In this document: in pieces, positions 41,240 to 49,696 of the stretch | How positions within the stretch are numbered: the stretch's first letter is position 1 | Layout: each line of letters begins with the position of its first letter | NCBI RefSeq assembly: GCF_963675165.1 | Contig: NC_087386.1 | Span: 6,025,566 to 6,089,565, forward strand | DNA from: Halichondria panicea | Taxonomy: Eukaryota; Porifera; Demospongiae; Suberitida; Halichondriidae | DNA: 64,000 nucleotides | Direction: 5' to 3' | Translations under genes and position numbers: made by a program | The notes under the pieces: model-generated | The model's database searches: none | What the model was told of the DNA's origin: nothing | Seen by the model: only the letters and a program-made list of their open reading frames with translations

Positions 41240-44200
41240 ATGTCTAACTCAAGCCTTGTGAACAGACTGCAAGGTAAACTGCACCAGGAATCTCACACAA
41301 GACAACTACAGGAAGACGTCAACTCCAAACTGCAGACAGAGCATGATCGACTACTCAAGAGGCTAGCTGAGGCTGAGAATCACATCGATCGACTTCGATT
41401 GGGAGCACATCTTGAGCTAAAGAGACATTTTGTTGTCACGCACGAGCACAACTATGGCGACGATGATCATGCCTCGAGGGCCAAACCTGTATTACTACCA
41501 CACCACCCCCCAGTACATGATCTAAACACTGCTACCACTAGAACTGACATGTCTGTTGGAACCACATGGGAGGGGATAGTACATGATATCGAATTACCAG
41601 AAGACACTCTGACTGATTTAGACGAGAGATTACACCACCCATCACCTCAGCATTACACACTCGATGTTAACACTGACCATGAGTCCGAACCTATTGACCA
41701 CACCCCATACGAGGACACCTCCTCCTTGAGCACGGACGGAGATATCTCTCAGATGTCAGCGACTACGATTGTGGATAGGGCAAGTGCTGAGAGTATACAA
41801 TATGCACATTTACTCAAGATCAAGTCTCTACAGGGGAAAATTTCCGAGCTCAAATCAAAGCTTAACGAGAAGGGCTCCCCATTTAATGAAGGGGTTTCCC
41901 CATGTAACGAGGGGGGCGCCTCATTTAACGAGGTACTGACGGGACTACGAGATGTGCAGACGGAGCATACACAGTTGAGTGAGGATATTCACGAGTCACA
42001 GGCCACACTGGAGGCACTAAAGAACAAGTACAAGGGAAAAGCATCTCGGAGGATAGCAAGCAGTCAGCAAGCCATTGGAAAGGAGGTAGTTTACAATTGA
42101 CATTTTAGTCCGTACAGCCTTGTCTTTTCCTACTGTAGCTATAATTGTGTTTGTATGTACAGCCTAAATACTGACCTGACTTTACTTTCCGTAAACTGTT
42201 TCAACAGCCGTTAACAATAATCCAATTTCAACAATTTTATGGTTTTCTGAAAGCTTAGAAAGAGACCTTTCAAATGAATGTGTTTAAATTTAGCATTTTT
42301 CGCCTTTGGACCATGGACTAATCCATGGTATTGGGTCGAAATTAGCTAATTATTTGATCTCTCAAAGATGAACATGTATGACATCATTTGAAACGTCTCT
42401 TTCTAAGCTTTCAGAAAATATGAAAATTAATCCACTGAATTCAAGTTATGGCAGCTGAAAGAGTGTCAGAGTCAGAATTGCTTTTGTTTTTTTCTTCACT
42501 GCAGTTGGCTACTCTTGCTGACCAACTTAGTGACTTTGTGCAGCTCCTACAGTTGACGGCGGAACCGTCTCAAACCTCCACTCCACCCATCTTCATGCCC
42601 TTACACCTCCACACTCCCACACGCCCACTCCTCCACACACCACACAAGACGAGGGACGAGACCACGCCTCTCCTCCCCCCTCCCGGATCATCTGCTACAG
42701 AGAGTGCCCTACATGCTCCAATAAATGGACAATGGCGAGTGAAGTATTATATAATATAGAATGGTCTCAGAATCAAAAAACTGAAGGAATTTGGACATAA
42801 TAATCATACTGTTGCAAGTGCCAATAAACTGCTTTTGGTACTAATGAATTAATTGCCATGTCATAACTAAATACAAGTCATAGTACATGGCAGCTATAAA
42901 ATTATTCTACACAGCCTTTGCTACTGGAAAAGTATTTGTACTGTGCTCACTTTTTAATAATGCTAGCTCTATTAAATTTTTATGACTCCCCTTTCTCCAC
43001 ACAGGTCTCCTCAACCAGTGGAGGATGACTCGGACAGTATCGTGTGTTCAGAGCTCTCTTACGACTCCTCCCCTTTCCTCTCTTCCAAGTATTTCTCTTC
43101 AACGCTGGATATAGAATCACATGATGCTACAGTTGACCCGCTAGAACTGTCACCTGATGGTGTATACCGTACTAGTGATGATGGCAAGTATCAGACACAT
43201 ACAGAGCAGTCAAGTGATGTGTACAATCCACCACCTCAGCGTCGTGATGGTGTATATCGTACTAGTGATGATGGCAAGTATCAGACACATACAGAGCAGT
43301 CAAGTGATGTGTATAATCCACCACCTCAGCGTCCTGATGGTGTATATCGTACTAGTGATGATGGCAAATATCAGACACATACAGAGCAGTCAAGTGATGT
43401 GTACAGTCCACCACCTCAGCGTCCTGATGGTGTATATCGTACTAGTGATGATGGCAAATATCAGACACATACAGAGCAGTCAAGTGATGTATACAGTCCA
43501 CCACCTCAGCGTCATGATGGTGTATATCGTACTAGTGATGATGGCAAGTATCAGACACATACAGAGCAGTCAAGTGATGTGTACAGTCCACCACCTCAGC
43601 GTCCTGATGGTGTATACCGTACTAGTGATGATGGCAAGTATCAGACACATACAGAGCAGTCAAGTGATGTATACAGTCCACCACCTCAGCGACCTGATGG
43701 TGTATACCGTACTAGTGATGATGGCAAGTATCAGACACATACAGAGCAGTCAAGTGATGTGTACAGTCCACCACCTCAGCGTCCTGATGGTGTATATCGT
43801 ACTAGTGATGATGGCAAGTATCAGACACATACAGAGCAGTCAAGTGATGTATACAGTCCACCACCTCAGCAACCTAGAGAAGATACGTTCCTCCTACAAG
43901 AGAGAGCTCCTTCAACAACTGAATTAAATGAAGGTTGTCTAACATACCACACACACTAGCTACTAGTACTCTGTATGTTAACAATTATTAGCTAGCAATT
44001 TGATGTAGGTAGTTAAGTATATAGAGGGTTCGTGTAAGTTATAACTTTTATCATGAATTGTATGATGCATAAAAACGTGGCTACCTAGAGAGCTAAGAAA
44101 ATGTACTCATGAAGTTTTAATTTTTTTACAGGAACTGATCCAAGAGGCACATTCCTGCTGCCAGACGCCCCCTCATTCACGACTGTACCAAGAGGCCAGC

Positions 44201-47672: not shown

Positions 47673-49696
47673 ACGCACACACACACACCAGGTCAAGCTG
47701 ACAAGAGAGACTACAGTGCCCAGGCAACCACTCCTGACAATGTCAGGGGGGAGGAGCCAAGCTTCGCTCAAGTGATTACCTCAACACCCACAAAAACCAA
47801 CAGAACTGTCCAACAAACACCACATGCAGTACCCGCAAACCAAAAAGCACTCTTCCATTCCGAGGACTCAATCTCTCCCTCACCCCCAGCGGCTGGAGAG
47901 AGAGATCGCTCACGGGAAAAAAGGAGTGTAAAGTTATCAAGTCCAGCCTCTCCCTCAGGCTATGGGTCTACACAACCACATGCTACTTATCGTACCGTTG
48001 CAACCACCCGGCACTCTACTCCGGGTGCAGTACACAGAGTGGCAGTCACCTCACAAGATGGCCAACCTAACACCACGTCTCCCCAGCACACACATTATCG
48101 GAGCACAGGTCCAGCCTATCCCTCAGGCTATGGGTCTACACAACCTTATCGTACCGCTGCAACCACCCGGCACTCTACTCTGGGTACAGCAGATGGCCGA
48201 CCTAACACCACCTTCCCCCAACATACACATTATCGGAGCACAAGTCCAGCCTATCCCTCAGGCTATGGGTCTACACAACCTTATCGTACCGCTGCAACCA
48301 CCCGGCACTCTACTCTGGGTACAGCAGATGGCCGACCTAACACCACCTCCCCCCAACATACACATTATCGGAGCACAAGTCCAGCCTCTCCCTCAGGCTA
48401 TGGGTCTACACAACCTTATCGTACCGCTGCAACCACCCAGCACTCTACTCTGGGTGCAGCAGATGGCCGACCTAACACCACCTCCCCCCAACATACACAT
48501 TATCGGAGCACAAGTCCAGCCTCTCCCTCAGGCTATGGGTCTACACAACCTTATCGTACCGCTGCAACCACCCAGCACTCTACTCTGGGTGCAGCAGATG
48601 GCCGACCTAACACCACCTCCCCCCAACATACACATTATCAGAGCACAAGTCCAGCCTCTCCCTCAGGCTATGGGTATACACAACCTTATCGTATCGCTGT
48701 AACCACCCGGCACTCACCTCCAGGCACAGCACACAGAGTGACAGTCATCTCACAAGATGGCCGACCTACCTCCCCCCGGCACACACATTATCAAAGCCGC
48801 CCTACTGTAAGAGACACCCTCCATACAGAAAGAAGAGACTACGGCAGTAACGTATCCATGGCAGCAAGACACACACCACTCGAAGGCAACTATAAACACT
48901 TTACTACATCAGCCACATATGGCCCAACCCCAACCAATCTCATGTATGGACCCCCCACAGTCGTGACCCCCAGCAGACAAGAGAGGGGACCACCCACAGT
49001 CGTGACCCCCAGCAGACGAGATAGGGGACCCGCCACAGTCGTGACCCCCAGCAGACAAGAGAGGGGACCACCCACAGTCGTGACCCCCAGCAGACGAGAT
49101 AGGAGACCCGCCACAGTCGTGACCCCCAGCAGGGTGGTATACGTATCGACACACTCTCCATCGGACGAGGAGCTGTATCTCTCCGAGCCAGTTGGTACAA
49201 CACAGAGGATAAAGGTCAAAGGTGGGAGGAGGCTGGTTGTGAGACCTGTGCATTATGTTGTGAGGGGGAGTGGCTTTGACAGTGGACAGGAAGTGAAGGT
49301 CAGAGGTCCTTGTATTGCTAGTTTAAGTACATCCTACCCATCTCTACCGTGCATATTATTTTGGATGGTCTTTCCAATAGCTAGTGTGTTAGTTTTTTTA
49401 TCAATCAATTTGACCACATCAAAAGCTTATACTCTAGCAATTTTTCCATAATCAGTTCAGATTCTCTAGCACTCAACCAATTAATGTGTTTGTTGTAGAC
49501 TAACGCATATAATTATGTTAGTTGAATCCGTAGAATAAAAGTTACATTTTGTTACCTCCGCCCTTCCCAGATGATGGACGGCCATGGTGGTCAGCTGGAT
49601 CTGAGCCAGGCTCTGCGTCTGGCCAAAACCCTCAAGAAAAGATCCCGCAAGATGCAAAGCTCTCTCAAGGAACTGGCCAAACACAAGAATATCTAG
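41240..49696 (+). CDS. large AKNA-like coiled-coil protein with six in-frame tandem-repeat arrays
   Basis: Seven exons (41240-42085, 42505-42743, 43005-43933, 44132-45440, 45731-47382, 47692-49298, 49571-49696) close in frame to 2235 residues. The N-terminus has coiled coil with [20 protein letters not shown] then LGA, a block resembling AKNA/AKNAD1, and a second helix [20 protein letters not shown]. Residues near 280-310 ([16 protein letters not shown]) and 1110-1130 ([13 protein letters not shown]) are further helices. A CPQCSGRG pair of cysteines lies near residue 1420. The C-terminal exon encodes [20 protein letters not shown], similar to the AKNA C-terminus. In vertebrates AKNA organises microtubules at centrosomes; that role is only inferred here. 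More than 40% of the coding sequence is tandem repeat, listed separately. The donor of exon 2 is weak (GTATTA). Confidence 0.6.
42201..42445. repeat. complete fold-back repeat copy
   Basis: Left arm 42243-42277 and right arm 42384-42418 are reverse complements over 35 nt with one mismatch (core CTGAAAGCTTAGAAAGAGAC). The centre (42309-42330) is a smaller palindrome around CCATGG...CCATGG. It lies in the first intron of the AKNA-like gene. Confidence 0.85.
43156..43875 (+). repeat. coding array 1: 90 bp x 8
   Basis: Exactly eight 30-residue units (start [18 protein letters not shown], end VYSPPPQRP) in exon 3 of the AKNA-like gene. Units differ by a few bases, mostly synonymous (CCGT/CGT, AAG/AAA) or N/S and H/R/P changes. 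Confidence 0.97.
44164..44463 (+). repeat. coding array 2: 42 bp x 7
   Basis: Seven units of the 14-residue repeat [14 protein letters not shown] at the start of exon 4, with an eighth partial unit (SPSFTTVP). Confidence 0.95.
45121..45408 (+). repeat. coding array 3: 36 bp x 8
   Basis: Eight units of the 12-residue repeat [12 protein letters not shown] near the end of exon 4. The last unit ends SAEEE. Confidence 0.95.
46773..47304 (+). repeat. coding array 4: 48-bp unit, about 11 degenerate copies
   Basis: The basic unit is [16 protein letters not shown] (16 residues). Several units are shortened or lengthened by whole codons (for example [19 protein letters not shown]), always keeping the frame. 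Exon 5. Confidence 0.95.
47621..47690. repeat. (CA)n microsatellite at a 3' splice site
   Basis: CA/CGCA repeats run into the acceptor of exon 6 of the AKNA-like gene (AG at 47690-47691). Confidence 0.95.
47940..48797 (+). repeat. coding array 5: about 135 bp x 6
   Basis: Six units of a 45-residue repeat, starting [20 protein letters not shown] and ending [10 protein letters not shown]. The first and last units carry an extra [14 protein letters not shown] insert. Exon 6. Confidence 0.95.
48951..49133 (+). repeat. coding array 6: 39 bp x 5
   Basis: Five 13-residue units alternating [13 protein letters not shown] and [13 protein letters not shown] in exon 6. Confidence 0.95.

What the first reader, a model, noticed from the sequence alone, without database searches (positions are those of the whole stretch)
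41240..49696. One gene carries six unrelated in-frame coding minisatellites
The AKNA-like gene contains six tandem arrays with unit lengths 90, 42, 36, 48, about 135 and 39 bp, all multiples of three, in four different exons. Together they are roughly 2.9 kb of a 6.7 kb coding sequence. The unit sequences are unrelated, so expansion has happened independently at least six times within one protein. Even degenerate units in array 4 change by whole codons. This suggests tolerance for, or selection on, repeat-driven length variation, and the gene could be highly polymorphic between individuals. It could be a rapidly evolving scaffold or a self/non-self marker; that last idea is speculation.
Basis: partly seen in the sequence, partly recalled or inferred. 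Interest (0 to 1): 0.85.

Follow-up and report, generated by a model that had tools for sequence, protein, structure and literature searches.

The report
Repeat-packed disordered gene, probably sponge
One gene of an animal genome (probably a sponge) has six unrelated stretches of repeated code that all keep the reading frame; this looks like an extreme case of a known and mostly tolerated process rather than a new kind of system.

Summary
The six cover 2,652 nt (39.6% of the CDS); all eight cover 2,887 nt. Every unit length is a multiple of three. The six units are unrelated to each other, and searches of the 131-Mb genome found each only here. Seven arrays passed a fixed cut-off in 8.5 kb, against at most three in any equal span of 17 sampled 10-kb stretches or the rest of the window.

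The explanation is ordinary. Other in-frame arrays occur in this genome, and L020 holds three in one long open frame. Substitutions among units are about what no selection predicts (17 of 44 synonymous, 13.9 expected). The protein looks like an intracellular scaffold with coiled coils and long disordered stretches. Most likely, duplications arose repeatedly by slippage or unequal exchange and only frame-keeping ones survived. "AKNA-like" is not supported by Pfam. Self/non-self has no support. Polymorphism and transcription could not be tested. Interest is moderate: a rich example of a known kind.

The parts
41240..42085 (+). Exon 1: start codon, predicted long helices (residues 3-65, 175-210, 229-281); contains the weak 21-bp array
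   Evidence: Splice search; no stop in frame, codon log-odds best in frame 0; single-sequence AlphaFold2 model, mean pLDDT 60.6, block means 76-93 over residues 1-60
41862..41933 (+).
   Evidence: TRF score 81
42505..42743 (+). Exon 2
43005..43933 (+). Exon 3, mostly the 90-bp array
43153..43870 (+). Array 1: 90 bp x 8.0 (30-aa unit [30 protein letters not shown])
   Evidence: pN/pS 0.16; 5 of 9 changes synonymous; matches only here in the genome
44132..45440 (+). Exon 4, carries two of the six arrays and one degenerate array
44164..44438 (+). Array 2: 42 bp x 6.5 (14-aa unit [14 protein letters not shown])
   Evidence: matches only here in the genome
44869..45031 (+).
   Evidence: TRF scores 119 and 206 for the two periods
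45120..45399 (+). Array 3: 36 bp x 7.8 (12-aa unit [12 protein letters not shown])
   Evidence: three identical units; matches only here in the genome
45731..47382 (+). Exon 5: about 1 kb of non-repeat S/T/P/H-rich sequence, then array 4
   Evidence: 0 stops in frame against 13 and 33 in the other forward frames of the non-repeat part; a 348-aa piece from the exon's start to the edge of array 4 matches one place in the genome
46769..47302 (+). Array 4: 48-bp unit, 12 copies of 24-51 nt, all whole codons ([16 protein letters not shown])
   Evidence: matches only here in the genome; Pfam Bflower_2 match at cut-off judged a repeat effect
47692..49292 (+). Exon 6: arrays 5 and 6
   Evidence: single-sequence AlphaFold2 gives no residue of 533 with pLDDT >=70
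48056..48715 (+). Array 5: 135 bp x 4.9 (45-aa unit), with degenerate flanking part-copies
   Evidence: units 3 and 4 identical over 135 nt; in the genome matches only itself and its flank
48948..49132 (+). Array 6: 39 bp x 4.7 (13-aa units such as [13 protein letters not shown] and [13 protein letters not shown]), with a 78-bp higher-order period
   Evidence: units 2 and 4 identical; matches only here in the genome
49571..49696 (+). Exon 7: C-terminus and stop codon
   Evidence: codon log-odds here favours another frame, so this exon is the least certain

Best explanation
This is a protein-coding gene for a long intracellular scaffold-type protein: helical, coiled-coil-like segments at the N-terminus, then long stretches rich in S, T, P, G and R that look unstructured. 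Short segments of its large exons were tandemly duplicated many separate times by replication slippage or unequal exchange. Selection removed changes that broke the frame but otherwise mostly tolerated the change in length, because the stretch acts as a flexible linker. Shown: the arrays, their independence, the frame-keeping and the open reading frame. Supported: weak constraint on unit sequence. Inferred: disorder, linker role, copy-number polymorphism, intracellular location and scaffold function.
For: The TRF rows in the gene that pass the cut-off have periods divisible by three (8 of 8 rows, 7 arrays), against 7 of 12 in 17 sampled stretches and 3 of 7 in the rest of the window. Array 4 changes length only by whole codons (12 of 12 units). 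Units are unrelated (15 of 15 pairs) and DNA from each array matches only this locus (6 of 6). Nine non-repeat segments have no in-frame stop before the end, and frame 0 has the best codon score in 8 of 9. Changes among units: 17 of 44 synonymous, 13.9 expected, P 0.18. Repeat residues are 14.7% order-promoting types against 20.2% in the rest of the protein. AlphaFold2: confident first helix in exon 1, none of 533 residues at pLDDT >=70 in exon 6. The same process occurs elsewhere in the genome: a 21-bp array with 34 copies in a long ORF (L007), a 228-bp repeat of a Cys-rich unit (L015), and L020, where a 661-aa open frame spans arrays of 24, 18 and 54 bp.
Against: The gene holds more arrays than any other sampled span (7 against at most 3), and a simple tolerance model does not say why this gene. 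Array 1 has low pN/pS (0.16; 5 of 9 changes synonymous, P 0.041), which hints at constraint there. Apart from array 1, the changes do not single out the predicted frame: in array 2 another frame has more synonymous changes (6 against 5 of 15), and arrays 3, 5 and 6 tie with another frame. Single-sequence AlphaFold2 does not by itself prove disorder; for exon 6 it drew low-confidence strands in array 5 (block means about 45-58). The gene content of the sampled stretches is unknown, so enrichment relative to disordered coding sequence was not measured. The one comparison at hand, an 897-aa ORF in the window, has one array in 2.7 kb, about a third of this gene's density per coding base.
Confidence: 0.68

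Rival explanations
1. The repeats are maintained by selection as multivalent binding platforms: each unit carries a short motif, and copy number tunes binding strength, for example five T-P-S-R sites (CDK-type consensus, recalled) in array 6 and a repeated Y-S-P-P-P segment in array 1.
For: Array 6 carries TPSR five times and the protein has 11 [ST]P.[KR] matches and 71 [ST]P (no chance expectation was computed). Array 1 changes lean to synonymous (5 of 9, P 0.041; pN/pS 0.16).
Against: Over five arrays the changes fit no selection (17 of 44 synonymous, 13.9 expected, P 0.18). A tandem array multiplies whatever motif it started with, so a repeated motif is not evidence of use. Arrays 2, 3, 5 and 6 show no excess of synonymous change (P 0.35-0.75).
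Confidence: 0.2
2. A highly polymorphic self/non-self marker.
For: Arrays with identical units suggest recent turnover, so alleles may differ in length.
Against: No 19-residue window with Kyte-Doolittle mean >=1.2 anywhere in 2,233 aa, so no membrane span; the most hydrophobic window starting in the first 42 residues averages -0.23, unlike a signal peptide. No surface-receptor domain among the hits of seven exons scanned one by one with Pfam (the sub-threshold hits were myosin tail, SIKE, WXG100, a pox inclusion repeat, PAS_4 and cytochrome haem lyase, and the one hit at its cut-off was Bflower_2, see Tried and rejected). No excess of amino-acid change among units (27 of 44 non-synonymous, 30.1 expected).
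Confidence: 0.03
3. Partly an artefact: an assembly error in copy number, or exons that are not all used in the mRNA.
For: No reads or RNA data were available. The intron-5 acceptor lies at the end of a CA repeat with three usable acceptors in the range tried, and 48 splice combinations are open. Exon 7 scores better in another frame. The changes among units do not by themselves mark the reading frame except in array 1.
Against: Each array is found at one place only. Unit differences are spread within arrays, which a simple duplication of one unit by the assembler would not give. Eight of nine non-repeat segments favour the predicted frame.
Confidence: 0.08

Closest known systems
Coding minisatellites / intragenic tandem repeats (Daphnia PMC2763877 and PMC3152781; bumblebees PMC6286909; human PMC1273636; Candida albicans PMC6162428; abstracts seen)
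   Same: Tandem repeats in coding sequence that change protein length; in Daphnia magna multiple-of-three units sit preferentially in coding regions (PMC2763877), and in Daphnia pulex coding regions hold more 7-50 bp units than 1-6 bp ones (PMC3152781).
   Different: Here one gene holds six (eight with the weak ones) unrelated arrays covering about 40% of the CDS. Copy-number variation is not shown.
Yeast flocculins such as FLO1 (recalled, not looked up)
   Same: Several different tandem arrays in one long gene, with length variation by recombination.
   Different: Those are secreted, wall-anchored adhesins; this protein has no membrane-like or signal-like stretch.
AKNA, a centrosomal protein (PMC8535656; passages seen)
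   Same: Large and rich in S, T and P (AKNA has two PEST regions); the helix ending [14 protein letters not shown] recalls a vertebrate AKNA segment (recalled, a lead only). Cep57_CLD_2, a centrosome-localisation family, matches residues 6-53 weakly (E 0.0071, 16.9 bits, cut-off 27.1) in one of three scans that covered this stretch (absent).
   Different: No match to Pfam AKNA PF12443; no RGRP core.
L020, another locus of the same genome (C15:5722948-5726187)
   Same: Three arrays of 24, 18 and 54 bp, all multiples of three, inside one 661-aa open frame on the minus strand.
   Different: Fewer arrays; gene identity not worked out, and the frame is not shown to be a gene.

Membership tests
Coding minisatellite (protein-coding tandem repeat) | Tandem units longer than about 6-10 bp inside an exon | tested here: met
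   (exons predicted from sequence, no transcript)
Coding minisatellite (protein-coding tandem repeat) | Unit length and unit indels keep the reading frame | tested here: met
   8 of 8 TRF rows over the cut-off divisible by three; 12 of 12 units of array 4 whole codons
Coding minisatellite (protein-coding tandem repeat) | Copy-number variation between individuals (VNTR) | not testable with these tools
   Only one assembly held; no reads or second individual
AKNA | Pfam AKNA domain PF12443 | tested here: not met
   No hit in 3 segments at E<=1, 5 segments at E<=10 with HMMER filters on (for one segment 25 of 35 hits were shown, up to E 0.23), 7 exons at E<=0.1, nor in the whole genome (where the 14 control genomes were also silent, so there was no positive control)
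AKNA | AT-hook | tested here: not met
   No RGRP; 5 isolated GRP, 4 of them in array 5. A motif search only
AKNA | Centrosome localisation through the C-terminus | not testable with these tools
   Needs expression in cells
Bflower_2 (five-fold beta-flower, PF21785) | Match to the family model over its cut-off, specific to the sequence | tested here: inconclusive
   Exon 5 (array 4) scores 38.4 bits against a cut-off of 38 and six regular units 39.2, but two unrelated tandem arrays of the genome match nearly as well per stretch (28.0 and 27.4 against 28.4 bits)
Cell-surface self/non-self receptor | Signal peptide, membrane span and surface domain | tested here: not met
   (a hydropathy scan, not a dedicated predictor; Pfam exon by exon)

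The most novel reading that the evidence does not exclude
This gene is a hypervariable length locus: at least six independent, still active in-frame minisatellites let one scaffold protein differ by hundreds of residues between individuals, and this variation is used, for example to tune multivalent binding.
Probability: 0.12. Interest if true: 0.65.

Novelty: new member of a known kind. Interest (0 to 1): 0.36.

Why it matters
If copy numbers vary, this would be a compact natural experiment: six unrelated repeats in one protein, so slippage rate, unit length, base composition and selection can be compared with much else held equal. It also suggests that this genome makes in-frame minisatellites readily, which matters for gene annotation and for judging fast-evolving proteins.

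Tried and rejected
AKNA membership: rejected on Pfam. The resemblance of one exon-1 helix to AKNA is recalled only.

Beta-flower fold for array 4: Pfam Bflower_2 matched exon 5 at E 1.3e-9. Nine arrays with residues permuted within the six 16-aa units did not match it (0 of 9), but 6 of the 9 hit some other family at E<=0.1, the best at E 1.2e-5 and above its own cut-off (25.4 against 25 bits), which shows that repeats inflate such scores. A genome search then found two other tandem arrays with nearly equal per-stretch scores. Judged a repeat effect; not excluded, since the real array aligns as one stretch over 88 residues and the controls do not. A first set of permuted arrays drifted out of register because unit lengths vary, and was not used.

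WXG100 (E 4.6e-6 at exactly its cut-off of 27.3 bits in one segment; 9.3e-5; 0.043): a family of small proteins (bacterial by recall) matched by a helical stretch, taken as spurious. PAS_4 on array 1 (E 0.0034, below cut-off): taken as a repeat effect.

Relatives elsewhere: exon 1 against GTDB genomes and exon 5 non-repeat against IMG/VR found none. These collections hold prokaryotes and viruses, so the absence says nothing about other animals. No solved structure matched array 4 at E<=1. NCBIfam gave no hit for exons 3-6.

Species: not settled. 'Sponge' is recalled from gene content and genome size and was not tested; the listings of two paper searches (14 of 16 listed, 1 of 1) show no assembly of 131.46 Mb with 17 chromosomes. 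The listings for sponge coding minisatellites (15 of 20 listed) and for AKNA with sponge (15 of 19 listed) show nothing on this gene.

Larger background sample: 160 random stretches were drawn and 100 of them asked for, but none was obtained; the sample is 17 stretches, all at 3.0 Mb of their chromosomes.
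Full report
OBSERVATION. The window lies at G000:C10:6025566-6089565 in a genome of 131,455,214 bases and 39 contigs, 17 of them 5.7-18.1 Mb long. Trying GT/AG sites in narrow ranges around the six introns seen by eye gives 48 open combinations of 6,696-6,825 nt; they share the same seven exons and differ by up to 95 nt in where an exon begins or ends. I used the 6,702-nt, 2,233-aa form. 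Arrays 1 to 6 lie in exons 3, 4, 4, 5, 6 and 6 and sum to 2,652 nt (39.6% of the CDS). With two weaker in-frame arrays, at 41862-41933 and 44869-45031, the sum is 2,887 nt (43.1%).

IS IT CODING? Periods divisible by three keep any stop-free frame open, so openness of the arrays proves little. The non-repeat segments do better. In nine segments (exon 1 with its weak array included; a few short flanks left out) the predicted frame has no stop before the end, while both other forward frames contain stops, except one frame of exon 7. A codon log-odds score, trained on two long ORFs of the window against stretches that I assumed to be non-coding, is best in the predicted frame in 8 of 9. The exception is exon 7 (126 nt), the least certain part. 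Array 4 has 12 units of 24, 39, 42, 48 or 51 nt, all whole codons. Against this, the base changes among units do not mark the predicted frame except in array 1 (synonymous counts by frame: array 1, 5/0/4 of 9; array 2, 5/6/3 of 15; array 3, 2/2/1 of 6; array 5, 4/2/4 of 10; array 6, 1/1/1 of 4).

IS IT MORE THAN CHANCE? With one cut-off (period >=15, >=3 copies, score >=100) the gene has 8 TRF rows, all divisible by three; these are 7 arrays, because array 4 takes two rows (the 21-bp array falls below the cut-off). Seventeen 10-kb stretches, all taken at 3.0 Mb of C1-C17, hold 12 arrays (7 of 12 divisible by three), and the rest of the window holds 7 (3 of 7). Expected in 8,457 bp: 0.71; Poisson P(>=7) 1e-5. 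Arrays are clumped and the gene was picked for its arrays, so I rely more on the empirical maximum: 3 in any 8,457-bp span of those stretches or of the rest of the window (one whole 10-kb stretch, L007, holds 4). Arrays cover 33% of the gene span (exons and introns), 3.5% of the sampled stretches and 4.9% of the rest of the window.

INDEPENDENCE. All 15 pairs of units score within shuffled controls. DNA from each of the six arrays (two or three units each), searched in the whole genome, matches only its own array, or for array 5 also its degenerate flank (the tool warns that very common words are skipped). A 348-aa piece reaching from exon 5's start to the edge of array 4 matches one place only at E<=0.001, so no paralogue was seen.

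TURNOVER AND SELECTION. In the five arrays of fixed period (whole units only: 8, 6, 7, 4 and 4), identical unit pairs occur in four (arrays 2, 3, 5, 6: 1, 3, 1 and 1 pairs) and none in array 1 (0 of 28 pairs, though two pairs differ by one base). Array 6 shows a 78-bp higher-order period. This points to recent duplication. Among the units I inferred 44 changes from the unit consensus; 17 are synonymous, 13.9 expected if the same base changes fell anywhere in the unit, P 0.18. By array: 5 of 9 (P 0.041), 5 of 15 (0.72), 2 of 6 (0.60), 4 of 10 (0.35), 1 of 4 (0.75). Array 4 was left out of this count because its units differ in length. So there is no clear selection on unit sequence, with a hint of constraint in array 1, where pN/pS is 0.16 (arrays 2, 3, 5 and 6: 0.64, 0.34, 0.67 and 1.06).

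WHAT THE PROTEIN IS. A single-sequence AlphaFold2 model of exon 1 (282 aa, mean pLDDT 60.6) gives long helices at 3-65, 175-210 and 229-281, the first with block means of 76-93 up to residue 60. Exon 6 (533 aa) has no residue at 70 or more; low-confidence strands were drawn in array 5. Repeat residues are poorer in order-promoting types (14.7%) than the rest (20.2%). No 19-residue window is hydrophobic enough for a membrane span. Pfam finds no AKNA domain. The nearest hint at a cell structure is a sub-threshold match of residues 6-53 to Cep57_CLD_2 (E 0.0071), which did not appear with longer queries and which a generic coiled coil could give. The name AKNA-like is therefore unsupported here, although the exon-1 helix recalls AKNA to me.

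A SIDE LEAD. Exon 5, through array 4, matched Pfam Bflower_2 at its cut-off (38.4 against 38 bits). Per PMC10584680 (passages seen) the beta-flower is a symmetric beta-barrel fold found among predicted structures. Permuted controls did not match it (0 of 9), but two unrelated tandem arrays elsewhere in this genome score almost the same per stretch. I treat it as a repeat effect.

NOT ALONE. Elsewhere in the genome: a 21-bp array of 34 copies in a long ORF (L007), a 228-bp repeat of a Cys-rich unit (L015), a possible 75-bp coding array (L012), and L020, where a 661-aa open frame on the minus strand (1257-3239) spans arrays of 24, 18 and 54 bp. In the window, an 897-aa ORF (7779-10472, minus) carries a 39-bp array of 3 copies. 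L020 came up in a search for repeats of a certain pattern, so it shows that multi-array loci exist, not how common they are.

MECHANISM. Shown: independent arrays, frame kept. Supported: weak constraint on unit sequence. Inferred: slippage or unequal exchange makes the duplications; frame-breaking ones are lost; the rest persist because the stretches are flexible linkers. This agrees with what is reported of coding tandem repeats in other organisms (abstracts of PMC2763877, PMC3152781, PMC6286909, PMC1273636, PMC6162428), though the Candida paper argues for selective effects of such repeats. PMC3995336 (abstract) reports that most human protein repeats are old and conserved, so recent arrays like these are not the rule everywhere.

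VERDICT. A real and rich example of a known kind. Its special point is six to eight arrays in one gene; its main gaps are the lack of a second individual, transcripts and orthologues.

Noticed in passing
L020 (G000:C15:5722948-5726187): Three neighbouring arrays of 24, 18 and 54 bp inside one 661-aa open frame, a second multi-array coding candidate.
   Followed up: partly
42106-42500, 11291-12540, 16327-16589, 50300-50411: The intron-1 sequence of this gene holds a dispersed element with 35-bp inverted ends (97%); partial copies at about 72% and 84% identity lie at 16327-16589 and 50300-50411, and the 331-bp tandem array at 11201-12540 is made of related copies (69-72%).
   Followed up: partly
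26125-32663 (+): CH, RhoGEF and PH domain exons in order, Vav-like by recall, with a 33-bp array of 16.6 copies at 27113-27660 between the CH and RhoGEF exons.
   Followed up: partly
8454-8570, in the ORF 7779-10472 (-): A 39-bp in-frame array of 3 copies in an 897-aa ORF with no Pfam hit at E<=0.01; Caprin-like by recall only.
   Followed up: partly
15687-15992 (-) and 20073-20798 (-): Tudor and OST-HTH/LOTUS domain exons, possibly one germline-type gene (recalled association).
   Followed up: no
L015:1-2351 (C14) and L007:3972-4708 (C6): A 228-bp repeat encoding a Cys-rich unit, 10 copies, and a 21-bp array with 34 copies in a long ORF with membrane-like stretches by eye.
   Followed up: no
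46650-46745: A CPQC...C stretch ([11 protein letters not shown]...HKC) just before array 4 (for the place); weak DnaJ_CXXCXGXG match, E 0.013, below cut-off.
   Followed up: no
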